From Thermoflexales bacterium (GTDB lineage: Bacteria > Chloroflexota > Anaerolineae > Fen-1058): a stretch of 45,458 nucleotides of DNA. Shown here piece after piece: positions 10,974-39,901 of the stretch. Position numbers and translations under genes: made by a program. The DNA is taken from positions 1 to 45,458 of the forward strand of contig JAFGFO010000163.1 in NCBI GenBank assembly GCA_016931085.1. Direction: 5' to 3'. Each line of letters starts with the position of its first letter. Positions within the stretch are counted from its first letter, which is position 1. Under the pieces are notes generated by a model, which made no database searches, was not told where the DNA came from, and was given only the letters and a program-made list of their open reading frames with translations.

Positions 10974-11204
10974 ATGGATCGAGAAGAACGAGAACAAAAC
11001 TATAAAGTAGTGCTCAACCACGAAGAGCAGTATTCGATCTGGCCGGCCGAGCGCGAGAACGCGCCTGGCTGGCGTGATGCTGGTGTCATCGGCACCAAGG
11101 CCAAGTGCCTGGCCTATATCGAGGAGGTGTGGACCGATATGCGGCCGCTCAGTCTGCGCCAAAAGATGCAAGAGATGGAGGAAAGGCGACAGGCCGGGGA
11201 GTAA
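10974..11204 (+). CDS. MbtH-like protein
   Basis: 76 residues. All hallmarks of the MbtH family are readable: [27 protein letters not shown], and [17 protein letters not shown], with the conserved Trp residues. MbtH-like proteins bind NRPS adenylation domains and are needed for their folding or activity, so this is probably the partner of one or both A domains encoded at 17303-26066. The Shine-Dalgarno TAAGGA (10961-10966) is 7 nt from the ATG. The charged C-terminal tail ([11 protein letters not shown]) is an extension beyond the core. I could not find a convincing promoter in the 224 bp upstream. The next gene has its own promoter inside the 121-bp gap. Confidence 0.95.
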
Positions 11205-11249
11205 GCCTGCGGTGGCTAAAAGCTTGTTCTCTTTTTGATACCCAGTTCC

Positions 11250-11278
11250 TTGACCAATAAGCTATAAGTCTTTATAAT
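11250..11278 (+). promoter_or_regulatory. Sigma-70 promoter for the transporter-fusion/FkbH/NRPS operon
   Basis: TTGACC (11250-11255), 17-nt spacer, exact TATAAT (11273-11278), 48 nt upstream of the ATG at 11326. It probably drives the operon through 26066. Confidence 0.75.
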
Positions 11279-11325
11279 ATGCCCAACGATATCATTTCTG
11301 GCTAGAAAGCAAAGGACTAGATACT

Positions 11326-14300
11326 ATGACGCGCTTGCTCAAATTGTTCAATCTGCGCTCACAAGAATGGCCGCGTGTGGCGTTGGTGCTATTAATGATT
11401 ACGATCACGAATATCGGCGGCCTGTGGGGATCGGTGGTCGCTTACGCTGCCTTTTTGAATCAGGTCGGGGTCGGTGCGCTGCCTTGGGTTATGATGTTTG
11501 GCGCGCTGGGTTCTATCCTGGCTATTGCGGTTTACTCGATCTTTGTCGACCGCGTCAGCAACGACGCCTTGATGCTGGCTATCTTTGTTTTTGGCATTGT
11601 GAGCATCGGATTGGGCTTGGTGCTGTTAGCTTTGGGGCAGCCTGGGCTGGCCTACCCGCTCTTGTCCCTGCTCTGCCTGGCCTGGCTGGCGGTTTTCAAT
11701 CCTCATTTTACCACTTATGTGAACAGTTTTTACGACATCCAGGCGGCCAAGCGGGTGCTGCCAGTGGTGTCAGCCGGCGCCCGGGCTGGGACCGTCATCG
11801 CCGGGCTGAGCATGCCGTTCCTGACGACCCGCTTGGAAGCGTGGATCATTGTTGTGATCTGGCTGTTGAGTTATGTTGTGGCGATGGGCGTCATCTGGCT
11901 CACGCCGTACCTGCTGCGCGAAAAGCAATTCCAGGCCGCGCCAGCCTCAAGCTCGACGTTGTCCGCGCCGGGCAAGCCGCGCGCTTCGTACACTGATAGT
12001 GTGCGGGAAGGCTTTAGCTACACGCTGCAATCCCCCTATCTGCGCTGGATGGCGATTGCTACCCTGTTGCTCATGGTGCTGATGGCCCTGGTGGAATACC
12101 TCTCCAGCGGTCTATTGACGGAGCTCTACCGCGCGCCAGACCGATTGCCCGGCTTTTTACCCAGGGACCTGGCTGGCTTTCTGGCTTTGTTGGGCGGGTT
12201 GGGTAGCCTGGTGGCTTTGCCCACGCTTTTGTTCGCGATGAACCGGCTTATCGCGCGCCTGGGTTTGGGCAATGTCGGTCTAATCTTTCCCATCGGCAAT
12301 TTGTTTGCCTGTTTCAGCCTGGCGCTGGTCCCTCTGTTCCCTGCCTTGGCCGGCGCCAGCGTGGCGTATTTAGACCGCACGGCTTTTCGAGCTGTCTTCC
12401 AATTGCCAGTGGATAGTTTGCTGTATAACGCGGTGCCTTTGAGGGTCAAGGGCCGGGCGCGCGCTTTCGTAAATGGCTTGATCGTGCCGGTCGGGACCTT
12501 GGTCGGCGGTCTGCTGCTGCTGCTCTTGCGCTCGCCAGCGCTCGGCTGGCTCATCTCGGCCTTGATTGGCGTGCTGGCCGTGGTCTATTTGGCCAGTACC
12601 TTTGTCATCCGCCGGCTTTACGCCCAGGCCCTGGTCAAAATGTTGGAGCAAGAAGACTATTCCTTCTTGTTGTCCCAAGAAGCAGCCGAGTTGACTGTGG
12701 CCGATCCGAGCACTCTGACTCAATTACATAACAAGCTTCAATCAAGCACCAACTACGAGCTGACGGTCTTTATCGCCCAGTTGATCAGCCAGGTTGGTGG
12801 CAAACAGGCGGTCCCCATCCTGGCGCCGGCGGCTATGGAAACGCAAGATGCCCGTACACGCGCGGCCATGGTCGATGTCTTGGTCGCCACCGGTTTGACG
12901 GATGGCGCACTCAACCAGCTCTATGCGCATTTTTTGACTGACCCGGCCGGAGAGGTCCGGCAGTCGGCCATTACTGGTCTGGAGGTATTGGTCGGGCCGG
13001 CCGACCCAGGCTTCCGCGCCCAGATGTTGGGCATGGTAGACGATCCCGACCTCGCAGTGCGCACGCGGGTGTTGTCTGCCCTGATGCGTTCGGGCGATTT
13101 TTACCAATTGGCGCCGGCGGTTCAGGCTTTGGAGTGCTTGCTGGATGACGAGGACCCACTCAATCGGACACGGGGCGTGCGCGTGCTTGGACGAATCGAC
13201 GACGAGCGAGCCACCCGCCGCCTGGCTGCCAGCCTGTCCGATCCGGCTGATGAAGTGCGGCTGGAAGCGGCCCTGGCTGCAGAAACGCTGGTGCAAGAGA
13301 GCTTGCCCGCATCGGCCCAGGCTGCGTTGGTCGATGGGATGAACGGCTTGCTGTCTGATCCCGTCGAGCGCGTTCGCCAGGCGGCCCTGGTTGTTCTAGG
13401 CCACGCCGGCGGCCAAGCGTCGCACCAGGCGATGGTAGACGCCCTGGCCGATCCCAGCCCACAGGTCAGAACGAGTGCTGTAAACGCGTTGGCCCAGGCT
13501 GGCAAAGCGGTTATCCCCCTCGTCCATCCCAAGCTCAATTCGCCTGACCCCCAGATGCGCAAGATGGCCAGCGTGATCCTGAGCCGTGTCAGCCCGAGGG
13601 AGTTTGGCCCCCTCATCAGTGGGACGCACGTGATGGGGAATCTGCTCTCTATTTACAGTAACCACGGCCTGCTTCATGCACTGGGAGCCTGTAGCACGTA
13701 CGCCAGCACGGCCGTTTTGTGCAGCGCGCTCCGCGAACGTAACCAGCGATTGGCCGAGGAAATCTTTTACTTGCTCACGGCCATTCACGCCCCAGAATCC
13801 GTCAAGGTCATCAGTGACTCACTGCACAGCGAGAGCGCTCACGCACGCGCTAACGCCAGCGAGGCGTTGGAAGCGTTGACCACGCCCCAAATCGCTCGCC
13901 TGATGTCGCCACTTTTCGATCCCACTTTGCAGCCGGAGCAGTTGCTCTCTCTCAGCCAGGATACCTGGCAGATGAAGCTGCCCGATGCAATCGGGGCGAT
14001 CAAGCAACTGATCACCCAGCCTGACGACCCGTGGCTGCGCACGATCACCGCCTTTGCCCTGGGTGAGCTTGGGGCAGCGCTGGCGGACGCGAAAGCGGAC
14101 GTTGAGCTCAAGCTTGAGAAGAGACGCCGCCCACCGGCCGATCTCTTTGGGGCGCTGGCAGGGGACGAGGCCGAGGACAAGGCTGAGGCAAAAGCGGAGC
14201 TTGAGGCCGAGACTAAGGAGCTGCGCCCCAAGCCACCCTTCGCCCCGGCGGATATTGAGGCGATGCTGACTGCCTCGCTGCTTGACCCTGTGGAGGATGT

Positions 14301-14895
14301 ACGCCTGGCTGCCCAGATGGCTCGGCAAGTGATGGACGCCGGCAGTCTTGATGCTCGTTTTCAGTCCATCAAGGATTTGAAACAAAATCAAAGGGAGGAC
14401 AACTTGCTTTCACCAATCGAAAAAATCATTTTCCTCAAAGAGATCGACTTTTTCCAGGGCATGACGGTTGATCAATTGAGGGCCCTGGCCAACGTGTGCG
14501 AGGAAGAGCTGGTTGAAAAGGATGCCCGCATCTTTAACGAGGGTGATCCGGGAGGTGTCTTGTACGTGGTGGTCAATGGGAAAGTGGGCATCGAACTGGA
14601 AAAACGGGCTGGCTCTTTCGCTCGCCTGACCGACGTCGGCGCTCACGCCTGTTTCGGTGAGATGAGCTTGTTCGACAATAGCCCGCGCTCCGCCTCGGCC
14701 ATGGCTATCCAAGACACCCTGGTGTTAAAGTTGCGCCGCGAGCCCCTGATCGCGTTGGCTCGCCAGAACCCGGAGTTGTCCCTGGAGTTGATCAATGTGC
14801 TCAGCCGGCGGCTGCGCGAGGCTAACGAGCTCATCGCCGAACGGACTCGTTCCCGGCCGCGCGAGCTGCACAAGTTGTTCGACCAGTTCGAGTGA
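11326..14895 (+). CDS. Npt/MFS-like transporter fused to HEAT repeats and a cyclic-nucleotide-binding domain
   Basis: 1189 residues. N-terminal membrane part (about 1-430) with about 12 hydrophobic helices, resembling ATP/ADP-translocase/MFS-type bundles. A HEAT-repeat array (about 470-800 and again near 860-980, e.g. DPSPQVRTSAVNALAQAGK) follows, then an Ala/Glu/Lys-rich linker. The C-terminal cNMP-binding domain (about 1035-1165) has a phosphate-binding cassette, FGEMSLFDNSPRSASA, at 1110-1125 with the Glu and Arg that contact cyclic nucleotides. Fusions of this kind are known in environmental bacteria; their substrate is not. Lying between mbtH and the FkbH/NRPS genes, it may export or sense the peptide product. 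Shine-Dalgarno AAAGGA (11311-11316). Confidence 0.85.
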   Translation: MTRLLKLFNLRSQEWPRVALVLLMITITNIGGLWGSVVAYAAFLNQVGVGALPWVMMFGALGSILAIAVYSIFVDRVSNDALMLAIFVFGIVSIGLGLVLLALGQPGLAYPLLSLLCLAWLAVFNPHFTTYVNSFYDIQAAKRVLPVVSAGARAGTVIAGLSMPFLTTRLEAWIIVVIWLLSYVVAMGVIWLTPYLLREKQFQAAPASSSTLSAPGKPRASYTDSVREGFSYTLQSPYLRWMAIATLLLMVLMALVEYLSSGLLTELYRAPDRLPGFLPRDLAGFLALLGGLGSLVALPTLLFAMNRLIARLGLGNVGLIFPIGNLFACFSLALVPLFPALAGASVAYLDRTAFRAVFQLPVDSLLYNAVPLRVKGRARAFVNGLIVPVGTLVGGLLLLLLRSPALGWLISALIGVLAVVYLASTFVIRRLYAQALVKMLEQEDYSFLLSQEAAELTVADPSTLTQLHNKLQSSTNYELTVFIAQLISQVGGKQAVPILAPAAMETQDARTRAAMVDVLVATGLTDGALNQLYAHFLTDPAGEVRQSAITGLEVLVGPADPGFRAQMLGMVDDPDLAVRTRVLSALMRSGDFYQLAPAVQALECLLDDEDPLNRTRGVRVLGRIDDERATRRLAASLSDPADEVRLEAALAAETLVQESLPASAQAALVDGMNGLLSDPVERVRQAALVVLGHAGGQASHQAMVDALADPSPQVRTSAVNALAQAGKAVIPLVHPKLNSPDPQMRKMASVILSRVSPREFGPLISGTHVMGNLLSIYSNHGLLHALGACSTYASTAVLCSALRERNQRLAEEIFYLLTAIHAPESVKVISDSLHSESAHARANASEALEALTTPQIARLMSPLFDPTLQPEQLLSLSQDTWQMKLPDAIGAIKQLITQPDDPWLRTITAFALGELGAALADAKADVELKLEKRRRPPADLFGALAGDEAEDKAEAKAELEAETKELRPKPPFAPADIEAMLTASLLDPVEDVRLAAQMARQVMDAGSLDARFQSIKDLKQNQREDNLLSPIEKIIFLKEIDFFQGMTVDQLRALANVCEEELVEKDARIFNEGDPGGVLYVVVNGKVGIELEKRAGSFARLTDVGAHACFGEMSLFDNSPRSASAMAIQDTLVLKLRREPLIALARQNPELSLELINVLSRRLREANELIAERTRSRPRELHKLFDQFE

Positions 14896-14911
14896 ATTGA
14901 ACCGCAAAGGC

Positions 14912-14950
14912 GCGTCCAATCCTCTGCCTACGGCGGGGATTGGCGGACGC
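14912..14950 (+). repeat. Imperfect nested hairpin between transporter-fusion and FkbH genes
   Basis: Overlapping arms GCGTCC (14912-14917) / GGACGC (14945-14950) and CCAATCC (14916-14922) / GGATTGG (14937-14943), with inner GCC/GGC around TAC. It is preceded by ACCGCAAAGGCGC, a word common in dispersed bacterial repeats. No U-tract, so readthrough into the FkbH gene is likely. Confidence 0.5.
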
Positions 14951-15012
14951 CAAGATTAATTTTGACCAAGATGACTTCACAAGCCTTGAATGCGACACAG
15001 CCGGAGCGCTCG

Positions 15013-17310
15013 ATGCAAGAGCGGGAGATCGTTATTGCGTCCAGCTTTACCGCTGAACCCATCGAGCAAGCCCTCAGCTTTTGGATGGGTCAACTGGGCA
15101 TTCCCGCCAGCCTGCGCTTTGCTCCTTACGGCCAGGTCTTTCAGCAACTGCTCGATCCGGCCGGCATGTTTTTGAGCAACCGGAACGGTGTCAATGTCAG
15201 CCTGGTGCGGCTGGAGGACTGGCTGCGACCTGATGATGTCGCCTCGATCGGCAACGTTTCAGAAATGTTTGCAGATTGGGACGGACAAGAGGAAAAACTC
15301 CGCCACAATGCTCAAGAATTGGTGCGCGCTTTCCAATCGAGCGCTGAACGCTCCAGCACGCCTCAGTTGGTCTGCTTGTGCCCGGCTTCGCCGGCCGCTT
15401 TGGCCGATCCCGTGCGCCAGGCTGCTTTCCAGGAGGTGGAGGGGGACATCGCTTCCGATCTGGCGCAGATCGGAGGGGTGTACCCGGTGACGTCCGCAGC
15501 CCTGGCCTCTATTTACCCTGTGCCGGAGTATTACGACGCTTATGGAGACAAGCTTGGCCATATCCCCTACACTGGGCTTTTCTATACGGCCCTGGCTACC
15601 ATGGCCGCCCGCAAGATACACACTATCCTGAGCACCCCTTACAAGGTTATCGCGCTGGATTGCGACAACACCCTCTGGCAAGGCGTCTGTGCCGAGGATG
15701 GAAGCTTGGGGGTCGGCATTGACGCGCCCCGCCAGGCGCTTCAAGAGTTCATGGTAGCTCAGCACGAGGCCGGGATGCTGCTGTGCTTGTGCAGCAAGAA
15801 CGACGAGGCCGACGTGTGGGATGTGTTCGATCGCCATCCCGGAATGCGCTTGAAGCGCGAGCAGATTATCTCTTGGCGCATCAATTGGCAGTCCAAGTCG
15901 GAAAATCTCAAGTCCCTGGCGGGGGAGCTGGGCCTGGGCTTGGACAGCTTTATTCTGCTGGACGACAACCCGCTCGAATGTGCCGAGGTGCGGGCTCGCT
16001 GCCCACAAGTGCTGGCCCTTCAACTGCCCTCTGAAGCTGCTCTTATACCCCGCTTCCTGGCGCACACCTGGGCCTTTGATCATCTCAAGCTGACCCAAGA
16101 GGACAAGCGCCGGACGAGCATGTACCGGCAAAACGCTCAACGTGAGCGCTTCCGCCAGGAAGCTCTGAGCCTGACGGATTTCCTGGCCGGACTGGATCTG
16201 CAGATTCAGATTTCAGACATGGCTCCTCGTCAGTTGGCGCGGGTGGCGCAATTGACCCAGCGCACGAATCAGTTTAATACGACGACCAGGCGGCGCTCTG
16301 AGGCTGAAATCCAGCAGTTGTTGCAGTCGCCGGCTGCCGGCTGTCTCGTCGTTCAAGTGGCTGATCGCTTTGGCGAGTATGGCTTGGTTGGAGTGGTCAT
16401 CTTTGAACGGGCTAGCCAGTCCATCCAGGTGGACAGTTTTCTGTTGAGTTGCCGGGTGCTGGGGCGGGGCGTTGAGCACCACATGTTAGCCAGGCTGGGA
16501 GAAATGGCTCTTGCGAACAAGCTCAATCGCGTTGATGTGCCTTACCTGGCTACCCAGAGAAACCGGCCTGTTCTCGACTTTTTAGAAGGCGTGGGATCGG
16601 AATCCAAGGCAGCCCAAGGCGAGAGCATCGTTTTCAAGTTTCCGGCCTCCCGGGCGGCCGGTCTCACTTACCGGCCTAATGGAGCTGGGCAAGAGCAGTC
16701 GCCCGGGTCTGTTGCGCCATTAAGAAATGGCGCGCCAGTTCTTGATGGCGCCTTGGCCGCCGATGAGAAACAGCCAGCCGTCGACGCCGGGGCCAAATCT
16801 GCCCTGCTGGCGCGGATCGCCCTGGAGTTGTACGATGCCAGGCAGATCCAGCGTGTGATAGAGTCACAGGCGCGCCGGTCCAGGCCCGAATCGTTGGGTG
16901 ATTACGTCGCGCCGGAAACCGAACTCGAGCGCGAACTGGCGGCCCTGTGGCAGGATGTGTTGGGTATAGAGCAGGTTGGCATTCACGATGACTTTATCGC
17001 GTTGGGCGGTGATTCGATCAAGGGCGTTCGCCTGATCAACAAGATCGAGCAGAAATTGCACATTGTCGCTCAGGTGGTGGGCTTGTTCGAGGCGCCCACC
17101 ATTGCCTCCTTTGCCACCTATCTCGAGCGGCGCTATCCAGAAGTTGTAGCCAGCACGCCGGGCGCGCCGCCGAGCTTGGCCTTGGCCTCCTGGGGCAAAA
17201 GAATCCGGGCGAGACAATTGCTTGACCGGCTCGACCAACTTTCAGACGAACAAGTGGATAGTTTACTTCAAAACAGATTGCCCCCCAGAGAGGATATGGC
17301 TTATGGGTGA
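15013..17310 (+). CDS. FkbH-like HAD-family glyceryl-loading enzyme fused to an acyl/peptidyl carrier protein
   Basis: 765 residues. The N-terminal third matches the FkbH N-terminal domain (IVIASSFTAEPIEQALSFWM). The HAD core has VIALDCDNTLW with D216 and D218, LCLCSKND, and FILLDDNPLECAEV. After an APLRNGAPVL-containing linker comes a carrier domain with GGDSIKG, phosphopantetheine serine S668. FkbH enzymes dephosphorylate 1,3-bisphosphoglycerate and load glyceryl onto a carrier; here both are in one chain. Nearby genes for methoxymalonyl formation are absent, so an unmodified glyceryl unit is expected. The tail RLDQLSDEQVDSLL looks like a docking helix. ATG 15013 has GGAG 6 nt upstream; ATG 14971 and TTG 14962 are alternatives. 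The stop overlaps the next start by 8 nt. Confidence 0.88.
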   Translation: MQEREIVIASSFTAEPIEQALSFWMGQLGIPASLRFAPYGQVFQQLLDPAGMFLSNRNGVNVSLVRLEDWLRPDDVASIGNVSEMFADWDGQEEKLRHNAQELVRAFQSSAERSSTPQLVCLCPASPAALADPVRQAAFQEVEGDIASDLAQIGGVYPVTSAALASIYPVPEYYDAYGDKLGHIPYTGLFYTALATMAARKIHTILSTPYKVIALDCDNTLWQGVCAEDGSLGVGIDAPRQALQEFMVAQHEAGMLLCLCSKNDEADVWDVFDRHPGMRLKREQIISWRINWQSKSENLKSLAGELGLGLDSFILLDDNPLECAEVRARCPQVLALQLPSEAALIPRFLAHTWAFDHLKLTQEDKRRTSMYRQNAQRERFRQEALSLTDFLAGLDLQIQISDMAPRQLARVAQLTQRTNQFNTTTRRRSEAEIQQLLQSPAAGCLVVQVADRFGEYGLVGVVIFERASQSIQVDSFLLSCRVLGRGVEHHMLARLGEMALANKLNRVDVPYLATQRNRPVLDFLEGVGSESKAAQGESIVFKFPASRAAGLTYRPNGAGQEQSPGSVAPLRNGAPVLDGALAADEKQPAVDAGAKSALLARIALELYDARQIQRVIESQARRSRPESLGDYVAPETELERELAALWQDVLGIEQVGIHDDFIALGGDSIKGVRLINKIEQKLHIVAQVVGLFEAPTIASFATYLERRYPEVVASTPGAPPSLALASWGKRIRARQLLDRLDQLSDEQVDSLLQNRLPPREDMAYG
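16712..16739 (+). repeat. In-frame palindromic repeat within the FkbH-ACP gene
   Basis: Core GCGCCATT, loop AAGA, AATGGCGC (16714-16733). The 28-nt block matches the TPR-gene copy (5643-5670, minus) with one mismatch and is translated in the same frame. It lies in the linker between the FkbH and carrier domains. Confidence 0.8.
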
Positions 17311-20300
17311 CACGGCCGCCGCGCTTTCACCTAAGGACAAGCGTGCACTGCTGGCCCGTCTGCTCCAAGAAGAAGCCGCCCCCCTCCAAATCTTTCCCAT
17401 GTCTTTTGGGCAACAGCGCTTGTGGTTTTTGCACCAACTCGCCCCGGGCAATGCAGCTTATAACGAACCTACGGTCCTGCAGCTCACCGGGCGGCTGGAT
17501 GTGGGCGCCTTAGAGCAATGCCTCAACGAGTTGGTGCGCCGTCACGAAACGCTGCGCACTAGCTTCGCTTCGGTGGATGGGCAGGCGGTACAGATCATTT
17601 CGCCTCCTTTCCCGGTGCGACTCGTGCTAATTCACCTGGAGGATTTGCCTGCATCCGAGCGAAAGACTCGCATGGCTGACCTGCTCCTGGAGCAGGTTCA
17701 ACAACCGTTTGATTTGAGCCAGTCGCCTGTGTTTCGCGTCTCGCTCTTGCGCCTGGGCGAACGCGAACACGTGCTGCTGACCGTCACGCATCACATTGTT
17801 TTTGATGGCTGGTCAAGGGATATTTTCATCCGGGAATTGTTCGCGCTCTACCAGGCCTTTGCCGCCGGGGCAGTTCCCCAGTTGCCGGCGCTGCCTGTTC
17901 AGTATGTCGACTATGCCGCCTGGCAACATGAATGGCTGCAAGGCGCGGTGTTGCAAGCCCAACTGACTTATTGGAAGGAAAAGCTGGCCGGGGAATTGCC
18001 CACGCTGCAAATGCCGGCCGATCACCCCCGCTCTCCCATCCAAACTTTTCGAGGCGCGACTCGCTCGTTTACTATCCCTCAAGTGATGGTCGACGCTTTA
18101 AAAGCAGTCGGGCGGCAAGACAAGGCCACGTTGTTTATGACCCTGCTGGCCGCATATAAGGTTCTGCTGTATCGCTATACGGGCCAGACCGATATTCTGG
18201 TCGGCGCCCCTGTCGCTAATCGTAACCAGGCCGAGGTCGAAGGCTTGATCGGCTTTTTCGCCAACACACTCGCGCTGCGCACCAGGCTCGCGGACGAGCT
18301 CACTTTTCGTGATCTGCTTGGCCGGGTGCGCCAGGTGGTGCTGGAGGCTTTGGCTCACCAGGAGATGCCTTTTGAAAAGCTCGTGGACGTGCTGCATCTG
18401 GATCGTAACCTCAGCCACACACCGCTGTTCCAGGTTGCATTTGCCTTTCAGAGCGTTCGAGACAGCTCCACTTTCTCTTGGGCATTGCCTGGACTGGTCT
18501 GGAAGCGGCTGGATATTGACACCGGGATGTCCAAGTTTGACTTGACGCTATCGCTGGTCGAGCTTGAAGGTGGTCAGGGCGTGGTCGGCGGGCTGGAATA
18601 CAATAGTGACTTGTTTGACGAAACAACCATTACCCGCATGTTGGACCATTTTCAGATGCTGCTGCGAAGCATTGTAAGCGATCCTGGGCAATGCATCTGT
18701 AAGCTGCCGGTGCTGACCGAGCTTGAGCGGCAGCAGATTCTCTTCGATTGGAATGCTACCCAGACTGATTTTCCCCATGACGTCTGCTTTCACCAATTGT
18801 TTGAGGAGCAGAGCGCACGGACGCCAGATGCAATCGCTCTCGTCTATCGTGATCAACACCTGAGCTATCGCGAGCTGAACGCCCGCGCCAACCAACTGGC
18901 ACACCACCTGCAATCTTTAGGGGTGGGGCCAGAGATCGCGGTGGGGGTGTGTATGGAACGCTGCGCAGAGATGGTCGTCGGCTTTCTGGGCATCCTCAAG
19001 GCTGGCGGTGTCTATGTCCCTCTTGATCCGGCCTATCCCCAAGAACGCCTGGCCTTTATGCTCCAAGATGCCGGCATCCAAATCCTGTTGACCCACCAAG
19101 AGTTGTCTCACTCTCTGATCTCTCGGCTCGAATCTTCAGTCTCGACTGTGCTTTGCCTGGATACTGACTGGTCCACCATTGCCCGGCATAGTCCAAGCAA
19201 TCCGATCAGTGCCGTGACTGCCCAAAATCTGGTTTACATCATCTATACCTCCGGCTCGACCGGTGTGCCCAAGGGTACTCTGATTGCCCATCGCGGCTTG
19301 TGCAATGTGTCTCAGGCCCAGATTCAACGCTTTGACCTGGGAGCCAGTGATCGCATTCTCCAACTGGCTTCTTTGAGTTTTGACGCATCCATCTTTGAAA
19401 TCGTGATGGCCCTGCGAGGAGGCACGCTTTGCCTGGAAGATCGGGAGAGCTTGCTTCCAGGCAAGGGCTTGATTCGATTATTGAATGACTTGAACGTGAC
19501 CATGATCACGATTACGCCCTCAGCCCTGGCTGCCTTGCCGGTCGAGGATTTGCCGGCTTTGAGGGTCATCAATGTTGCGGGCGAAGCCTGTCCGGCGGAA
19601 CTGGTAGCCCGCTGGATGGAAGGACGGCGCTTTTTCAATCTCTATGGGCCAACCGAGGGCACTATTTGGACGACAGCCGCTGAGTGCGTCGATGTCGATC
19701 GGCGTCCGCCTATTGGGCAGCCTGTTGCCAACACCCAGGTCTATATCCTGGACAAAGGGCTCTGCCCGGTGCCGATTGGTGTGCGGGGCGAGCTGTATAT
19801 TGGGGGGGTGGGACTGGCGCGTGGCTATCTCGACCGCCCGGCCTTGACGGCCGAGCGATTTATTCCCCACCCATTCAGTGACAGACCAGGCGCTCGCCTG
19901 TACAAGACCGGCGACCTGGCGCGCTGGCTGCCAAGCGGGGACATCGAGTATCTGGGTCGGGCCGATTTCCAGGTCAAGCTGCGCGGCTTTCGGATCGAGT
20001 TGAGCGAGATTGAAGCTGTGCTTGCCCAACATCCGGCCGTGCGTGAAGCTGTTGCACTCCTGCGGGAGGATCGTCCTGATCACAAGCAGTTGGTTGCATA
20101 CATCGTGCAGAGTCACGAGTCACGCATCACGAGTCGCGAGCTGGGCGACTATGTCAGGCACAAGCTGCCTGACTATATGGTTCCCTCTGCTTTTGTTTTC
20201 CTGGATGTCCTTCCTCTCACTCCCAGCGGTAAGGTGGACTGGCGGGCTTTGCCTGAGCCGGAGAGAGGAAGTAGAGAAGAAAGCTATGTCGCGCCGCGCA

Positions 20301-21946
20301 ATGCAGTCGAAGAGCTGTTGGCGACGATTTGGGCCGATGTGTTGCGAGTAGAGCAAGTGGGTGTGCACGACAACTTTTTCGAGTTGGGAGGGGACTCGAT
20401 ACTCAGCATCCAAATCGTTGCCAGGGCTAATCAAGCTGGGCTAAGCATTACACCCGCCCAACTGTTTCAGGGCCAGACTCTTGCCGAGTTGGCCCCGCTG
20501 GCAAGTCCCAGCCCGGCCGTTCAAACCGAACAGGGACTGGTCACGGGGCGGCTGCCCCTCACACCCATTCAACGCTGGTTCCTTGATCAAAAATGGCCCA
20601 ATCCTCACCACTGGAATATGGCGCTGCTGCTCGAAGCGCGTGCCCGGCTCAACGCTAGCTGGCTGGAGCAGGCACTCCAGCGACTGGTAGAGCACCACGA
20701 TGCGCTCCGCCTGCGTTTTGAAGCCGGCCAATCAGGCTGGCAACAGATGAATGCCGATCTGGGTGGCAGTGCGACCTTTATTCGGGTGGACCTGTCCGTA
20801 TTAGCGGCTGATGAGCACATGCAAGCCATAGATGCCAAGGCCTCTGAGCTGCATGCCAGTTTGAACCTGTCGGCCGGGCCACTCGTGCGGAGTGCTCTCT
20901 TTGAGCTGGGGCCACAACAACCCCAGCGCTTGCTCATCATCATCCATCACATGGCCGTTGATGGCGTCTCGTGGCGAATTTTGCTGGAGGACCTGGAAAC
21001 GATTTACCGGCAGCTTGAGCAGGGCCAGCCCGTCCAATTGCCATCCAAGACGACTTCTTTCAGGGAGTGGGCTAGGCGGCTGGAAGTGTATGCCCAATCA
21101 CCTGGCTTGCAATCAGAGCTGGAGTATTGGCTCCAGGCACGGGGGGCATTCGTCCCTCTACCAACAGACCTGGCTGGCCTGGATGCCAATACCCAGGCAT
21201 CGGCGCATGCCGTGACGGTATCGCTCAATGCCCAGGAGACCCGTGCTTTGTTGCAAGAGGTGCCGGCGGCTTACCAGACGCAAATCAACGACGTGCTGCT
21301 CACAGCATTGGTACAGGCCTTGAACCGCTGGACCGGGCAAGCTTCCGCATTGATTGACATGGAAGGCCATGGCCGAGAAGAGATTATAGAGGGTGTGGAC
21401 CTGTCGCGCACGGTGGGTTGGTTTACCACATTGTACCCGGTGTACTTGCACCTCGATACCACACTGCCGGGCCAGGCTCTCAAGTCGGTTAAGGAACAAC
21501 TCCGCCGCGTGCCCAACAAGGGCATTGGCTATGGCTTGCTGCGCTATCTGACCCAGGACGCGGGAACGACCGCGGCCGTGTGGCCTCAAGCCGAGTTGAG
21601 CTTTAATTACCTTGGCCGGTTTGACCAGATGCTGCCGGCCGGCTCACTGTTCCAGCGTGTGCAGGAATTCAACGAGGCGGCCCGCAGCCCTGAGGGTCGC
21701 CGGACACACCTGCTCAGCGTCGATGCGATCATTAGCGGCGGCTGTTTGCAGCTCAGGTGGAGCTATAGCGAAAACGTGCACCGGCACGCCACGATTGAGC
21801 GCCTAGCCGGCGATTTCACCCAAGCGCTGCGTGCCCTCATTGATCACTGCCAGTCGCCTGAAGCCGGCGGTTATACGCCTTCCGATTTCCCTGAAGCCAG
21901 CCTGAGCCAACAAGAACTCGATGCCTTGCTGGTTGAGTTGGGGTAA
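17303..21946 (+). CDS. Non-ribosomal peptide synthetase, module C-A-PCP-E
   Basis: 1547 residues. C domain about 25-465 with HHIVFDG (H163, H164, D168). A domain about 490-1000 with YTSGSTGVPKG (about 648), LYGPTEG, YKTGDLARW, and the A10 Lys in TPSGKVD. PCP with GGDSI, S1032. Epimerisation domain about 1080-1530 with HHMAVDG (H1215, H1216, D1220), DLSRTVGWFTTLYP and PNKGIGYGLL. By alignment to GrsA the specificity residues read D-A-F-T-N-A-L-I-W-K; I cannot assign the amino acid. Intact E motifs imply a D-residue product. Start ATG 17303 overlaps the FkbH-ACP stop and follows GAGAGGA. The N-terminus (LSPKDKRALLARLL) and the tail (LSQQELDALL) look like docking helices. A repeat-derived stretch lies at 20111-20140. 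Confidence 0.95.
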   Translation: MGDTAAALSPKDKRALLARLLQEEAAPLQIFPMSFGQQRLWFLHQLAPGNAAYNEPTVLQLTGRLDVGALEQCLNELVRRHETLRTSFASVDGQAVQIISPPFPVRLVLIHLEDLPASERKTRMADLLLEQVQQPFDLSQSPVFRVSLLRLGEREHVLLTVTHHIVFDGWSRDIFIRELFALYQAFAAGAVPQLPALPVQYVDYAAWQHEWLQGAVLQAQLTYWKEKLAGELPTLQMPADHPRSPIQTFRGATRSFTIPQVMVDALKAVGRQDKATLFMTLLAAYKVLLYRYTGQTDILVGAPVANRNQAEVEGLIGFFANTLALRTRLADELTFRDLLGRVRQVVLEALAHQEMPFEKLVDVLHLDRNLSHTPLFQVAFAFQSVRDSSTFSWALPGLVWKRLDIDTGMSKFDLTLSLVELEGGQGVVGGLEYNSDLFDETTITRMLDHFQMLLRSIVSDPGQCICKLPVLTELERQQILFDWNATQTDFPHDVCFHQLFEEQSARTPDAIALVYRDQHLSYRELNARANQLAHHLQSLGVGPEIAVGVCMERCAEMVVGFLGILKAGGVYVPLDPAYPQERLAFMLQDAGIQILLTHQELSHSLISRLESSVSTVLCLDTDWSTIARHSPSNPISAVTAQNLVYIIYTSGSTGVPKGTLIAHRGLCNVSQAQIQRFDLGASDRILQLASLSFDASIFEIVMALRGGTLCLEDRESLLPGKGLIRLLNDLNVTMITITPSALAALPVEDLPALRVINVAGEACPAELVARWMEGRRFFNLYGPTEGTIWTTAAECVDVDRRPPIGQPVANTQVYILDKGLCPVPIGVRGELYIGGVGLARGYLDRPALTAERFIPHPFSDRPGARLYKTGDLARWLPSGDIEYLGRADFQVKLRGFRIELSEIEAVLAQHPAVREAVALLREDRPDHKQLVAYIVQSHESRITSRELGDYVRHKLPDYMVPSAFVFLDVLPLTPSGKVDWRALPEPERGSREESYVAPRNAVEELLATIWADVLRVEQVGVHDNFFELGGDSILSIQIVARANQAGLSITPAQLFQGQTLAELAPLASPSPAVQTEQGLVTGRLPLTPIQRWFLDQKWPNPHHWNMALLLEARARLNASWLEQALQRLVEHHDALRLRFEAGQSGWQQMNADLGGSATFIRVDLSVLAADEHMQAIDAKASELHASLNLSAGPLVRSALFELGPQQPQRLLIIIHHMAVDGVSWRILLEDLETIYRQLEQGQPVQLPSKTTSFREWARRLEVYAQSPGLQSELEYWLQARGAFVPLPTDLAGLDANTQASAHAVTVSLNAQETRALLQEVPAAYQTQINDVLLTALVQALNRWTGQASALIDMEGHGREEIIEGVDLSRTVGWFTTLYPVYLHLDTTLPGQALKSVKEQLRRVPNKGIGYGLLRYLTQDAGTTAAVWPQAELSFNYLGRFDQMLPAGSLFQRVQEFNEAARSPEGRRTHLLSVDAIISGGCLQLRWSYSENVHRHATIERLAGDFTQALRALIDHCQSPEAGGYTPSDFPEASLSQQELDALLVELG
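20111..20140 (+). repeat. CACGAGT-type direct repeat inside the first A domain
   Basis: AGTCACGAGTCACGCATCAC then GAGTCGCGAG: repeated (A)GTCACG/CACGAGT words, read in frame as SHESRITSRE. It lies between A8 and A10, where the second module has an unrelated linker. It looks like a dispersed repeat captured as a loop. Confidence 0.55.
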
Positions 21947-21950
21947 AGCG

Positions 21951-24900
21951 ATGAATACGCCAATGTCCACTGCCAAAGATAGCGTTGAAGCCATCTATCC
22001 TCTTTCGCCTCTGCAAGAGGGGCTGCTCTTTCATACGCTGTATGCCCCAGGCTCGGGGATGTATGTGATACAGGCGGAGTATGCTTTGCACGGCCAGTTG
22101 GATATCCCGGCCTTTAAACGGGCCTGGCAGCGCGTGATGGAGCGGCACGCGGTACTTCGCACGCTCTTTGTGTGGGAACGCCGCGACAAGCCGCTCCAGG
22201 TCGTGCGCAAGAGGGTCGAGCTGCCCTGGACGCAGCTCGACTGGCAAGCTTTATCTCAGCCTGAGCAGCAGTCGCGCCTGGTGGCCTGGCTGGAGGATGA
22301 GCGCGTGCGGGGCTTTGACCTGGGCCAGGCGCCCTTGATGCGCCTGGCGCTGATGCAGACCGGGCCGGAAAGCTACCACTTCGTTTGGAGTCTTCACCAT
22401 CTGCTGATGGATGGCTGGAGTAAACCCCTGGTTTTTCGGGACGTCTTGACGTGCTATGATGCCTTCTGCGAGGGCCAGGACGTTCAGCTTGAACCCGTTC
22501 ATCCCTACAAGGATTATATTGCCTGGCTGCAGGGGCAAAGCTTGACCGAGGCCCAGGCTTTTTGGCAGCAGACGCTGGCGGGTTTCACCGCTCCCACGCC
22601 ATTGCGGGTCAACCGGAGGAGACTTGATAGATCGAACATCGACCCGCCCCGAGAGCACATTCAACAACACCTGTGCCTGTCAGAAGAAACGACGCTCGCT
22701 TTGCGGCAACTGGCCCAGCGACACCGCTTGACGCTGAATACGCTGGTGCAGGGCGCTTGGGCGTTGCTCTTGAGCCGTTACAGCGGCGAACAAGACGTGT
22801 TGTTTGGCACGACCGTCTCCGGCCGCCCGGCCGAGTTGGCCGGCGTCGAGTCGATGGTGGGATTGTTTATCAATACCCTGCCGGCGCGGGTGTGGGTCCC
22901 GCCCCAGGCCTCGCTTGTGCCGTGGCTGCAGGATCTTCAAGCTCAACACGTTCAACTGCGCCAGTACGAGTACAGCCCGCTAGTCCAGGTTCAGCAGTGG
23001 AGTGACGTGCCCACCGTCCAACCTTTGTTCGACACCATTTTGGCCTTTGAAAACTATCCCATGGACGCCGCTCTGAACTATGAAAGCAGCCATTTACAAA
23101 TCCGCCCGGCGAGCAGTTTTGAAAAAACAAGCTATCCCCTGACCGTCACCGTCAATCCGGGCCTCCAGTTATGCCTGAGCACCAGTTACAACGAGCAGGA
23201 TTTTACCTCGGTGTCCATCACCCACATGCTAGGGCATTTGCAGACCTTGCTAGAGGCGATGGTGAGCGAGCCTGAGCGGTGTATTTCAGACTTGCCGATG
23301 CTGACCGAGGCCGAGCGACAGCAGATTCTCTTGGATTGGAATGCCACCCAAACTGATTATCCACAAGATGCTTGCATTCACCAACTGTTCGAGAAACAGG
23401 TCGAACGTACGCCGGAGGCGGTGGCTCTCGTTTACCAGGATCAGCACCTGAGCTATCGCGAGTTGAATGCCCGCGCCAATCAACTGGCGCACTATTTGCA
23501 ATCCTTGGGCGTTGGGCCAGAGGTGTTAGTGGGGGTGTGTGTGGAGCGCAGTGCAGAGATGGTCATTGGCCTGTTGGGCATCCTCAAGGCTGGCGGGGCT
23601 TACGTCCCCCTTGACCCAAGCTATCCCCAAGAACGCCTGGCCTTTATGCTCCAAGATGCCCAAATTGAGGTTCTGCTAACGCAAGGCGCACTGGCAGCGT
23701 CTATGCTGCAAATCGCAAATGGTCATCCCCAGCTTGTCGAGGAGCGAAAACTGCAAGTCGTCGATCTAATAGACTGGGACGCTATTTTCCAAGAGAGCGA
23801 AAAAAACCCTGTCGCACGTATGTCCAGCAACAACCTAGCCTATGTGCTTTATACCTCAGGCTCGACCGGCAGGCCCAAGGGGGTGGCGATTGAGCACCGC
23901 AGCGTGGTGGCGCTGTTGCATTGGGCACGCAGTGTATACGATGAGGAGCAGATCGCCGGGGTATTGGCTTCAACCAGCATCAATTGGGATTTATCAGTAT
24001 TTGAATTGTTTGTCCCATTGAGTTGGGGGGGCTGCGTCATTTTGGTTGAGAACATCTTGCATCTGGCCGATCTGCACGGCGGCCAGCGGCTTACTTTGAT
24101 CAATACGGTGCCGTCGGCGATGAAGGAGTTGGTTAGTGGAGGAGGGCTGCCTGCTTCTGTACAGACGGTGAACCTGGCCGGTGAACCGCTTTCGACGCAA
24201 CTGGTTCAGCAGATCTATCAACAAGGGACCGTCAAGCGCGTCTATGACTTGTATGGACCTTCGGAAGACACGACGTACTCGACATATGGTTTGAGGCAGG
24301 CAGATGGGCCGGCGACGATAGGCCGCCCGATTGCCAACACGCAGGTCTATTTGCTGGAGGCCAATTTAAACCCGGTACCGATTGGCGTGCCTGGGGAATT
24401 GTATCTGGGTGGAGATGGTCTGGCAAGAGCTTATCTCCATCGTCCCGAGTTGACAGCGGCCAAATTCATTCCCCGTCCTTCAACCCTGGGTAAAGTTGAA
24501 GGCAGGCTGTACAGAACCGGCGACCTGGCCCGATGGCTGCCTAGTGGCGAGATCGAATTCCTGGGGCGAGTTGATTCCCAGATCAAGCTGCGCGGCTTTC
24601 GCATTGAGTTGGGCGAAATCGAAGCCGTGCTTGCTCGGCACCCGGCCGTGCGTGAAGCCGTTGTCCTCCTGCGGGGAGACCACCTCGACCATAAACAGTT
24701 GATAGCATACCTGGTCGCTGCCCCGTCAGATGGAGTGCCCCAAGGCAAGCTTGGGATGACGAGCATTTTGCGTGATTTTCTAAAGCTTAGCTTGCCCGCC
24801 TATATGCTGCCTTCGGCTTTCATCTTTCTAGATGCCTTTCCCCTAACCCCCAGCGGCAAAGTGGACCGTCGGGCGCTCCCAGAGCCTGGTGCGGGCCGGC

Positions 24901-26066
24901 CTGAACTGGAGCAAGCCTACGTGGCCCCCCGCAGTTCGGACGAGGAAACCATGGCCCAGATCTGGACCGAGGTGCTCGGTCTTGAGCATATCGGCATTCG
25001 CGATGACTTTTTTGAACTGGGTGGTCACTCGCTACAGGCCATGCAATTGATGGCCCAGCTCGAGCAACTCTTGGGAGAAAATTTACCCCTGGCTAGGCTC
25101 TTTCAACACCCGACGATTGAGCAACTGGCCAGCGCGCTGCGCACCGGGGGGGGAAACCGGCCCTGGTCAGCCCTGGTGCCCATCCGGTCCACGGGCACAA
25201 AGCCACCCTTTTTCTGCCTGCCCGGTGCAGGCGGCAATGTGATCTACCTCCACAGCCTGGCGCACCATCTCGGTCCCAGTCAACCGTTTTACGCTTTGCA
25301 GGCAGTCGGCCTGGATGGAGAGACCCCTCCCCATACCAGCGTGGAGGAAATGGCCGCTCATTATATTCAAGCCATTCAGACCGTGCAGCCACACGGGCCG
25401 TATCTGCTAGGTGGGCATTCTTATGGAGGAAGTGTGGCCTTCGAGATGGCACAGCAATTGCAGGGACGGGGCGAGCCAATTGCGCTGGTTGCCATTCTGG
25501 ATGCACTCGCACCAGTGTTAGAAATCGAGCCGCTTGGCGAGGATTGGGACGATGCCAGGTGGTTGATCGCGACATTGCAGCCTATCGCTCACCTGGAGGG
25601 TAGAGCGTTGGAAATCAGCTACGAGGATTTGCGACGGCTCGAGCCGGATGAGCAACTGAACCTTATGGTCACGTGGTTAAAAGGTGTCGACTGGCTGATC
25701 CCCGAGGCAGGCACGAGCCAGGTGCGGGGCCTGGTACAGGTGTTTCGAGCCATTTCCAAAGCCATAGCATGCTATAATCCCCGGGATAGCCTGCCCACGC
25801 GCCTGGCGATCTTGCGCTCCAGCCAGCCGCCGAGTAGCCAGGGCCTCTCGTCAGCGATGGCCGAAATCATGCGCGATCCAAGCTTAGGCTGGAGCCGATT
25901 TGCCGAGGGAGAGGTGATGCTGTACACAGTGCCGGGCGATCATATGACCATGATGACCCCTCCCCATGTCCAGGTGCTGGCGGAACGCTTGCTGGCTTGT
26001 TTCGAGCAGGTGAGCCTCAATGTCCCTGGGGTGCCACCAAGCAAGACAATGCTTGTTGCACAATAG
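21951..26066 (+). CDS. Non-ribosomal peptide synthetase, terminal module C-A-PCP-TE
   Basis: 1371 residues. The C domain begins YPLSPLQEGLLFHTLYAP, typical of DCL condensation domains downstream of E domains, with HHLLMDG (H149, H150, D154). The A domain (about 455-960) has YTSGSTGRPKG, YGPSEDT and TPSGKVD. Specificity residues by GrsA alignment are D-L-F-N-N-A-L-T-Y-K, the code I recall for the Ala-activating microcystin module McyA-2. PCP GGHSL, S1027. Type I thioesterase about 1065-1360 with GHSYGG (S1157), D1184 in AILDALAP and H1331 in PGDHMTM. It starts 4 nt after the upstream stop. This module adds the last residue, likely Ala, and releases the product by hydrolysis or cyclisation. Confidence 0.96.
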   Translation: MNTPMSTAKDSVEAIYPLSPLQEGLLFHTLYAPGSGMYVIQAEYALHGQLDIPAFKRAWQRVMERHAVLRTLFVWERRDKPLQVVRKRVELPWTQLDWQALSQPEQQSRLVAWLEDERVRGFDLGQAPLMRLALMQTGPESYHFVWSLHHLLMDGWSKPLVFRDVLTCYDAFCEGQDVQLEPVHPYKDYIAWLQGQSLTEAQAFWQQTLAGFTAPTPLRVNRRRLDRSNIDPPREHIQQHLCLSEETTLALRQLAQRHRLTLNTLVQGAWALLLSRYSGEQDVLFGTTVSGRPAELAGVESMVGLFINTLPARVWVPPQASLVPWLQDLQAQHVQLRQYEYSPLVQVQQWSDVPTVQPLFDTILAFENYPMDAALNYESSHLQIRPASSFEKTSYPLTVTVNPGLQLCLSTSYNEQDFTSVSITHMLGHLQTLLEAMVSEPERCISDLPMLTEAERQQILLDWNATQTDYPQDACIHQLFEKQVERTPEAVALVYQDQHLSYRELNARANQLAHYLQSLGVGPEVLVGVCVERSAEMVIGLLGILKAGGAYVPLDPSYPQERLAFMLQDAQIEVLLTQGALAASMLQIANGHPQLVEERKLQVVDLIDWDAIFQESEKNPVARMSSNNLAYVLYTSGSTGRPKGVAIEHRSVVALLHWARSVYDEEQIAGVLASTSINWDLSVFELFVPLSWGGCVILVENILHLADLHGGQRLTLINTVPSAMKELVSGGGLPASVQTVNLAGEPLSTQLVQQIYQQGTVKRVYDLYGPSEDTTYSTYGLRQADGPATIGRPIANTQVYLLEANLNPVPIGVPGELYLGGDGLARAYLHRPELTAAKFIPRPSTLGKVEGRLYRTGDLARWLPSGEIEFLGRVDSQIKLRGFRIELGEIEAVLARHPAVREAVVLLRGDHLDHKQLIAYLVAAPSDGVPQGKLGMTSILRDFLKLSLPAYMLPSAFIFLDAFPLTPSGKVDRRALPEPGAGRPELEQAYVAPRSSDEETMAQIWTEVLGLEHIGIRDDFFELGGHSLQAMQLMAQLEQLLGENLPLARLFQHPTIEQLASALRTGGGNRPWSALVPIRSTGTKPPFFCLPGAGGNVIYLHSLAHHLGPSQPFYALQAVGLDGETPPHTSVEEMAAHYIQAIQTVQPHGPYLLGGHSYGGSVAFEMAQQLQGRGEPIALVAILDALAPVLEIEPLGEDWDDARWLIATLQPIAHLEGRALEISYEDLRRLEPDEQLNLMVTWLKGVDWLIPEAGTSQVRGLVQVFRAISKAIACYNPRDSLPTRLAILRSSQPPSSQGLSSAMAEIMRDPSLGWSRFAEGEVMLYTVPGDHMTMMTPPHVQVLAERLLACFEQVSLNVPGVPPSKTMLVAQ

Positions 26067-32256: not shown

Positions 32257-32267
32257 ATGAGGTGGAG

Positions 32268-33560: not shown

Positions 33561-33591
33561 GTGCAACGCACCTTAGAGGTGCGTTGCACCT
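33559..33591 (+). repeat. Perfect 15-bp hairpin between UbiD and AcnX genes
   Basis: AGGTGCAACGCACCT, loop TAG, AGGTGCGTTGCACCT. It begins inside the UbiD stop codon (GTAG at 33557-33560), with no U-tract after it. It resembles the GTAG-hairpin repeats elsewhere rather than a terminator; it may still limit readthrough to AcnX. Confidence 0.65.
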
Positions 33592-33604
33592 GGGAAAAAC
33601 GTGC

Positions 33605-39875: not shown

Positions 39876-39901
39876 CGAAAACCTCTCTTGAGTCAACTTT
39901 T

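What the first reader, a model, noticed from the sequence alone, without database searches (positions are those of the whole stretch)
10974..26066. Compact FkbH-ACP plus two-module NRPS locus with no PKS: predicted glyceryl-D-Xaa-Ala
Seen: MbtH, FkbH HAD domain fused to a carrier (S668), C-A-PCP-E, C-A-PCP-TE, with overlapping or nearly abutting ORFs from FkbH on. Known: FkbH loads glyceryl from 1,3-bisphosphoglycerate onto a carrier, normally to feed PKS extension or tetronate assembly. Inference: with no PKS or tailoring genes, the glyceryl-ACP would act as the acyl donor for the first C domain. This gives a glycerate-capped dipeptide that the TE could hydrolyse or close into a small depsipeptide through a glyceryl hydroxyl. 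I know of no described pathway of exactly this makeup.
Basis: partly seen in the sequence, partly recalled or inferred. Interest (0 to 1): 0.78.

Follow-up and report, generated by a model that had tools for sequence, protein, structure and literature searches.

The report
Glycerate-primed two-module peptide synthetase
A bacterium, probably from the phylum Chloroflexota, carries a small enzyme line that probably starts with glyceric acid and adds two amino acids; the same opening move is known from cyanobacterial protease inhibitors, so this is a compact new relative of a known kind.

Summary
MbtH, FkbH-carrier, C-A-PCP-E and C-A-PCP-TE genes lie on the + strand; Pfam finds no polyketide synthase in the 22 window ORFs scanned. 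An MFS/HEAT/cNMP gene sits between MbtH and FkbH. Glyceryl priming followed by condensation is the best explanation: FkbH motifs are intact, the FkbH and NRPS1 genes overlap by 8 bases, C1 is LCL-like, E1 sits with epimerases, and C2 sits in the clade that holds the post-epimerase C domains. A2 has an alanine-type pocket; A1 is undetermined, perhaps aromatic. The novelty claim is only partly right. FkbH-primed NRPSs whose first step is peptide bond formation are described (dysinosin, suomilide, varlaxin, oci cyanopeptolins). Four of 292 sampled cyanobacterial genomes hold FkbH-T-C-A-T-E in one protein, one of them followed by a DCL-like C-A-T, the window's order. New are the compact form (no MT or ST, separate FkbH-PCP, TE after residue two) and the host. 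No paper found in our searches describes it. Product (D-glyceryl-D-Xaa-L-Ala) and release mode are inferred. FkbH-PCP genes also stand beside glycosyltransferases elsewhere, so FkbH-PCP alone does not prove peptide capping.

The parts
10974..11204 (+). MbtH-like protein, 76 aa
   Evidence: PF03621 70.7 bits; no NCBIfam hit at E 0.001
11326..14895 (+). MFS/TLC-type transporter with HEAT repeats and cNMP-binding domain; lies inside the locus, probably not part of the synthetase
   Evidence: Pfam HEAT_2, cNMP_binding, TLC; 258 relatives at E 0.001 including the window's own
14971..17310 (+). FkbH-PCP protein (ORF opens at TTG 14962; ATG at 14971 or 15013)
   Evidence: TIGR01686 298.7 bits, PF00550
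15640..16602 (+). FkbH HAD domain; DxDxT motif at 15658
   Evidence: residues 227-547; D233 and D235 in 147 of 147, T237 in 146 of 147 aligned sequences, window included; position
16933..17124 (+). carrier (PCP) domain of the FkbH protein; Ser codon at 17014
   Evidence: PF00550
17303..21946 (+). NRPS1, C-A-PCP-E, 1547 aa
17390..18742 (+). C1, LCL-like condensation domain, motif HHIVFDGWS
   Evidence: tree; motif
18800..20233 (+). A1, pocket letters DAFTNALIW; substrate undetermined, perhaps aromatic
   Evidence: code
20315..20494 (+). PCP1; Ser codon at 20396
   Evidence: PF00550
20552..21859 (+). E1, epimerization domain, motif HHMAVDGVS
   Evidence: TIGR01720; E clade; extent
21951..26066 (+). 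NRPS2, C-A-PCP-TE, 1371 aa (ORF opens at 21921)
21987..23330 (+). C2, DCL-like condensation domain, motif HHLLMDGWS
   Evidence: tree; motif
23388..24860 (+). A2, pocket letters DLFNNALTY, alanine-type
   Evidence: McyA is the best single-stretch PDB match, 559.9 bits
24951..25139 (+). PCP2; Ser codon at 25029
   Evidence: PF00550
25206..25988 (+). TE, type I thioesterase, GHSYGG
   Evidence: PF00975 111.9 bits; best PDB match 4zxh, 99.7 bits; motif
26148..27971 (+). Extracellular solute-binding protein family 5, possible operon member
   Evidence: PF00496
27968..29971 (+). HAMP-GAF sensor-like protein without a recognised output domain, possible operon member
   Evidence: its ATG overlaps the SBP stop

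Best explanation
This is a three-protein, glycerate-primed nonribosomal peptide synthetase. FkbH takes a D-glyceryl unit from 1,3-bisphosphoglycerate, removes the phosphate and loads the glyceryl on its fused carrier. The carrier docks in trans to NRPS1, whose LCL-like C1 joins the glyceryl carboxyl to the amino group of the A1 amino acid; E1 epimerises that residue. DCL-like C2 passes glyceryl-D-Xaa to L-Ala on NRPS2, and the TE releases glyceryl-D-Xaa-L-Ala, most simply by hydrolysis. MbtH would assist the A domains. Shown here: domain content, intact motifs, gene overlap, C/E subtype placement, A2 pocket letters. Inferred: glyceryl identity, trans handover, colinearity, product and release mode.
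For: FkbH motifs intact in an alignment of 147 sequences. Gene overlap of 8 bases. E1 falls in a 17-row epimerase clade (SH-aLRT 100); C2 in an 18-row clade (95) that holds both post-epimerase C domains of the set; C1 in the LCL part. Precedents in one polypeptide: FkbH-T-C-A-T-E in 4 of 7 cyanobacterial places read in full (L068, L072, L073, L074; last domain called E by motif and position; FkbM MT and sulfotransferase confirmed by Pfam in L073 only), followed in L068 by a HHLLLDGWS C-A-T ORF; L069 (FkbH-T-C-A-T-C-A-T-C-A-T) and L070 (FkbH-T-ST-C-A-T) also lack an upstream C. P0004 and P0006 are FkbH-T-C without an upstream C, and P0006 has the highest FkbH identity to the window, 63% over 522 columns. 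Literature passages: DysB, SuoB, BslA, varlaxin AerB, oci GA domain, FkbH in place of A domains in NRPS modules. Among the 22 ORFs scanned no dehydrogenase pair of the methoxymalonyl kind (described) was recognised.
Against: C1 carries no FkbH-specific signature: its best relatives are general LCL-like domains at about 53% identity, and the best C known to follow FkbH-T ranks only 200th (48.6%), though most of the compared NRPSs were collected with NRPS1 as query. The C2 clade also holds three domains that follow A-T without an E (L018, L024, L041), so it is not a pure post-epimerase group. FkbH-PCP proteins without an upstream C also stand beside glycosyltransferases in Acidobacteriota loci and in an exopolysaccharide cluster. 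No genome is held for the window, so partner genes elsewhere cannot be excluded. 0 of 49 fetched named-genome loci show the window's split order. In 3 of the 4 cyanobacterial FkbH-T-C-A-T-E loci no further NRPS ORF lay in the fetched flank. No biochemical data.
Confidence: 0.7

Rival explanations
1. The same line, but the TE cyclises or oligomerises: a glyceryl hydroxyl attacks the Ala thioester, giving a small depsipeptide or, through repeated loading, a cyclic dimer or trimer.
For: A type I TE with GHSYGG is present; a glyceryl starter leaves two hydroxyls. Lactone-forming NRPS TEs are known (recalled); EntF, surfactin and Vlm2 TEs are among the 47 PDB matches, but so are many other TEs.
Against: Monomer rings would have 9 or 10 members, which is strained (reasoned, not computed). 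Sequence does not tell hydrolase from cyclase here; the best PDB match is the TE of 4zxh, whose release mode was not looked up.
Confidence: 0.15
2. FkbH-PCP supplies glyceryl for another purpose, such as decorating a glycan, and the two NRPS genes make an uncapped D-Xaa-Ala or act with unseen modules elsewhere.
For: FkbH-PCP sits next to GT and GT-TE fusion genes in L005 and L015 and FkbH-PCP-TE lies in an exopolysaccharide cluster on an Aquisphaera plasmid. C1 resembles general LCL-like domains.
Against: No glycosyltransferase was recognised in the 22 window ORFs scanned. FkbH stop overlaps the NRPS1 start. NRPS1 begins with a C domain that needs a donor, and no other NRPS gene was recognised in those ORFs.
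Confidence: 0.1
3. The starter is a related C3 acid (for instance lactyl) rather than glyceryl.
For: FkbH-like domains have been proposed for lactate in other systems (recalled, no call).
Against: The FkbH-containing NRPSs in the passages seen are assigned glycerate. No starter-modifying enzyme was recognised next to FkbH.
Confidence: 0.05

Closest known systems
Glycerate-capped aeruginosins: dysinosin DysB, suomilide SuoB/BslA, varlaxin AerB
   Same: FkbH loads glyceryl on a PCP, which feeds C-A-PCP-E and then a further module; no PKS step before the first peptide bond (passages; genome comparators of the same domain order L068, L072-L074)
   Different: Those fuse FkbH, O-methyltransferase, PCP, sulfotransferase and module 1 in one protein and go on to Choi/Abn-type and Arg-derived units. 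Here FkbH-PCP is separate, there is no MT or ST, the second residue is probably Ala, then TE.
oci-type cyanopeptolin synthetase (glyceric acid loading domain)
   Same: Glyceric acid loading domain in an NRPS operon; L070 FkbH-T-ST-C-A-T looks of this kind
   Different: Seven modules and a sulfotransferase
Vioprolide, corramycin and cystomanamide FkbH modules
   Same: FkbH stands in place of an A domain in an NRPS module; corramycin's next C domain is described as LCL
   Different: In vioprolide and corramycin the FkbH module follows FAAL-ACP and has its own C; here there is none. For cystomanamide the passage gives no order.
Tetronate and methoxymalonyl-ACP pathways (tetromadurin, FK520)
   Different: Glyceryl goes to a FabH-like enzyme or is oxidised and methylated for PKS extension

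Membership tests
FkbH glyceryl-carrier synthases | Full-length FkbH domain above the curated cut-off | tested here: met
   TIGR01686 298.7 bits against 146.65, profile 3-320 of 323
FkbH glyceryl-carrier synthases | Conserved HAD motif and near-invariant residues | tested here: met
   D233 147 of 147, D235 147 of 147, T237 146 of 147, K312 147 of 147, D334 146 of 147, D335 143 of 147, window included; which are catalytic is recalled
FkbH glyceryl-carrier synthases | Loads glyceryl from 1,3-bisphosphoglycerate | not testable with these tools
   needs an in vitro assay
Glycerate-primed NRPS (DysB/SuoB/Oci kind) | FkbH-PCP with no upstream C in its protein, next to a C-A-PCP module | tested here: met
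Glycerate-primed NRPS (DysB/SuoB/Oci kind) | Glyceryl-PCP is the donor of the first C domain | tested here: inconclusive
   C1 placement does not discriminate; AU test p 0.256
Glycerate-primed NRPS (DysB/SuoB/Oci kind) | First module ends in E and is followed by a DCL-like C (aeruginosin branch) | tested here: met
   tree; TIGR01720
Aeruginosin synthetases | Sulfotransferase and methyltransferase in the loading protein | tested here: not met
   Pfam finds only PP-binding, NCBIfam only FkbH/HAD-IIIC and carrier-type hits, in the loading protein
Aeruginosin synthetases | Genes for Choi or Abn units | not tested
   no search with aer genes was run; none was noticed
oci-type cyanopeptolin synthetases | Seven modules with a sulfotransferase | tested here: not met
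   two modules only, no sulfotransferase

The most novel reading that the evidence does not exclude
The locus is a self-contained signal system: a minimal, undecorated glycerate-capped dipeptide, or a small cyclic oligomer of it, is made by the three proteins, bound outside the cell by the solute-binding protein encoded right after them, and read by the HAMP-GAF protein whose gene overlaps it.
Probability: 0.07. Interest if true: 0.65.

Novelty: new member of a known kind. Interest (0 to 1): 0.36.

Why it matters
If right, it is a stripped-down example of glycerate priming in NRPSs: a separate FkbH-PCP, one epimerising module, one releasing module. That makes the FkbH-to-C handover, which in the precedents seen is embedded in large multidomain proteins, easier to reconstitute, and it carries the chemistry to a Chloroflexota-like host. 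The product would be a small acyl-dipeptide of a type I did not find described. The wider lesson is that FkbH without a PKS is not by itself surprising.

Tried and rejected
Of 19 C-type domains after FkbH-T in the first tree, 14 fall in several places of the LCL part and 5 with the epimerases. A second tree of 43 rows left C1 unresolved, and an AU test did not reject C1 together with 19 post-FkbH-T domains as one clade (p 0.256); long branches are in that set, so this is weak both ways.

A search of papers for the A-domain letters found 0 papers. A1's letters have no match within 3 changes other than the window's own among 283 rows; the nearest whole domains, at about 60%, carry letters that I read as Phe/Tyr-like (the reading is recalled). 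PDB matches for A1 were unhelpful.

Taxonomy: no genome is held. Chloroflexota is inferred from organism names: of 13 named organisms among the 120 listed relatives of the MFS-HEAT gene, 10 are Chloroflexota, 2 Vecturithrix, 1 Desulfobacterales; among NRPS1 relatives names are mixed, cyanobacteria and Chloroflexota among them. The one genome-contig scan gave no Chloroflexota locus among 49 titles, so conservation in the host's own phylum could not be tested. A paper search on Chloroflexota NRPSs was read as a listing only.

The downstream SBP/HAMP-GAF pair: 1 of 146 cyanobacterial genomes had a HAMP-GAF relative at 1e-40, and the 15-kb stretch around it held no SBP match; unresolved. Acidobacteriota: 3 of 297 genomes had FkbH at 1e-100, one of them the centre itself; not followed. 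Plasmids: 561 records matched FkbH-PCP, 6 over 80% of the query; only two were opened (H1; H4, where FkbH follows a C and a ketosynthase motif lies in the same ORF).

A tail motif at the end of FkbH-PCP (LSDEQVDSLL) was compared by regular expression in the last 60 residues: 9 of 42 proteins under 800 aa and 12 of 78 longer ones among P0001-P0120, 7 of 120 NRPS1 relatives (P0121-P0240, the window's own included), 0 of 120 MFS-HEAT relatives. This is suggestive of trans docking at most, since partners are unknown.

Full report
WHAT IS THERE. The window holds, all on the + strand, an MbtH gene (10974-11204; PF03621), an 1189-aa MFS/TLC-HEAT-cNMP gene (11326-14895), a FkbH-PCP gene (14971-17310; TIGR01686 298.7 bits), NRPS1 C-A-PCP-E (17303-21946) and NRPS2 C-A-PCP-TE (21951-26066), followed by a family-5 solute-binding protein and a HAMP-GAF protein. 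Upstream of MbtH, HflX-like, M28 peptidase and GidA-family genes suggest the edge. Pfam on 22 window ORFs shows no ketosynthase, glycosyltransferase or further NRPS gene; smaller ORFs were not scanned. The FkbH stop and the NRPS1 start overlap by 8 bases and NRPS2 starts after a gap of 4 bases.

ARE THE ENZYMES INTACT. In an alignment of 147 FkbH regions, window included (205 domain hits; those spanning under 480 query residues were dropped, which takes out FkbH domains matched in pieces, such as those interrupted by a methyltransferase), D233 and D235 are in all 147 and T237 in 146; the window has the common letter at every near-invariant column printed. All three carrier serines, the C1, C2 and E1 HH motifs and the TE GHSYGG are present.

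WHICH C DOMAINS. A tree of 95 C/E domains from the 49 named-genome loci and the window (quick method) puts E1 in a 17-row epimerase clade (SH-aLRT 100), C2 in an 18-row clade (95) that holds both post-epimerase C domains of the set but also three that follow A-T without an E, and C1 in a 32-row LCL-like clade (97). That clade mixes C domains after A-T and after FkbH-T. By BLAST against 482 C-type domains, window included, C1's closest relatives reach about 53%; of the best 16, 8 follow A-T and 8 are N-terminal, so their donors are not all known. The best domain known to follow FkbH-T ranks 200th (48.6%, P0006). So C1 carries no FkbH-specific signature. That does not refute the reading, because 14 of 19 domains after FkbH-T lie in the same LCL part and corramycin's is described as LCL (PMC10099666 passages).

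SUBSTRATES. A2's pocket letters DLFNNALTY occur in 21 of 283 aligned rows, the window's own included, and McyA is the best single-stretch PDB match (559.9 bits); alanine is the recalled meaning of these letters. A1's DAFTNALIW is shared with no other domain of that set, and its nearest whole-domain relatives have letters that I read as Phe/Tyr-like. Xaa therefore stays open, with an aromatic residue as a guess.

RELATIVES. 5030 of 7994 scored candidates matched FkbH-PCP at E 0.001 and the best 120 were listed. In a FastTree tree of 146 FkbH rows, by my own profiles for C, A, T, TE and FkbH, 57 were FkbH-T with none of these in front, 32 FkbH-T-TE, 31 C-FkbH-T, 18 C-FkbH-T-C, 2 FkbH-T-C and 6 others. 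The window pairs with P0103 (695-aa FkbH-T, 99) and shows its highest identity (63%) to P0006, a FkbH-T-C protein without an upstream C. P0006 ends after C plus a tail, so what follows it is unknown. Of 49 loci from named genomes, 7 (L003, L014, L020, L025, L027, L033, L037) hold FkbH-T-C-A-T-E in one ORF, all with a C before FkbH; none of the 49 shows the window's split order (flanks up to 10 kb, some cut by contig ends). In 292 sampled cyanobacterial genomes 12 had FkbH at 1e-60, at 15 places. Of the seven places read in full, four are FkbH-T-C-A-T-E ORFs of 2859-2885 aa (L068, L072-L074), one is FkbH-T followed by three C-A-T modules (L069), one FkbH-T-C-A-T with a sulfotransferase (L070), and one C-FkbH-T (L071). 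Pfam shows an FkbM methyltransferase and a sulfotransferase in L073; in L068, L072 and L074 these are inferred from the same spacing, and E from motif and position. L068 is followed by a HHLLLDGWS C-A-T ORF; in L072-L074 no further NRPS ORF lay in the fetched flank.

WHAT IS KNOWN. DysB of dysinosin contains FkbH, methyltransferase, sulfotransferase, two PCPs, C, A and E (PMC6520454). SuoB and BslA load glycerate through FkbH before an Ile that is epimerised (PMC8609519; PMC13122637). The varlaxin AerB is the same (PMC10143770). These assignments are the papers' proposals. Planktothrix oci operons have a glyceric-acid loading domain (PMC2533009). A review states that FkbH stands in place of A domains in some NRPS modules (PMC8949500). 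The two-module, TE-ended form without MT or ST did not turn up in searches, which cover open-licence PMC papers only.

RIVALS. FkbH-PCP is not tied to peptides. In Acidobacteriota loci L005 and L015 it is followed by a glycosyltransferase and a glycosyltransferase-TE fusion, and an Aquisphaera plasmid carries FkbH-PCP-TE within an exopolysaccharide and exosortase cluster. In the window no glycosyltransferase was recognised and the gene overlap points to NRPS1, so I put this rival at 0.1. Cyclising or oligomerising release stays open at 0.15.

VERDICT. A sound observation and a likely mechanism, but a new member of a described kind. Interest lies in its compactness and host, not in the principle.

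Noticed in passing
L015:9848-15318; L005:9905-15520; similar FkbH-PCP plus TE-containing ORF order in L008, L016, L038, L043: Acidobacteriota FkbH-PCP genes followed by a glycosyltransferase and a glycosyltransferase-thioesterase fusion: glyceryl-carrier may feed glycan glyceration. Pfam was run for L015 and L005 only.
   Followed up: partly
L075:11875-14958 (NZ_CP042998.1, Aquisphaera giovannonii plasmid): FkbH-PCP-TE protein inside an exopolysaccharide/exosortase/ABC export cluster; 32 of 146 FkbH rows have this FkbH-T-TE order.
   Followed up: partly
L024, L028, L035, L036, L039: FkbH-T followed directly by a domain that falls in the epimerase clade (long branches): possibly an E-like domain acting on a FkbH-derived unit, or a degenerate C.
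   Followed up: no
11326-14895: Fusion of an MFS/TLC (ATP/ADP translocase-like) membrane part, HEAT repeats and a cNMP-binding domain; of 13 named organisms among 120 listed relatives 10 are Chloroflexota.
   Followed up: partly
26148-29971: Solute-binding protein family 5 with no permease among the scanned neighbours, its stop overlapping the start of a HAMP-GAF protein without recognised output domain.
   Followed up: partly
32262-34831: UbiD-family decarboxylase next to an aconitase-X protein; such a pair is reminiscent of the archaeal-type modified mevalonate pathway (recalled).
   Followed up: partly
34914-39896 and 39984-45458, minus strand: Two very long adjacent ORFs made of many SdrD_B-like and carboxypeptidase-regulatory-like repeats.
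   Followed up: no
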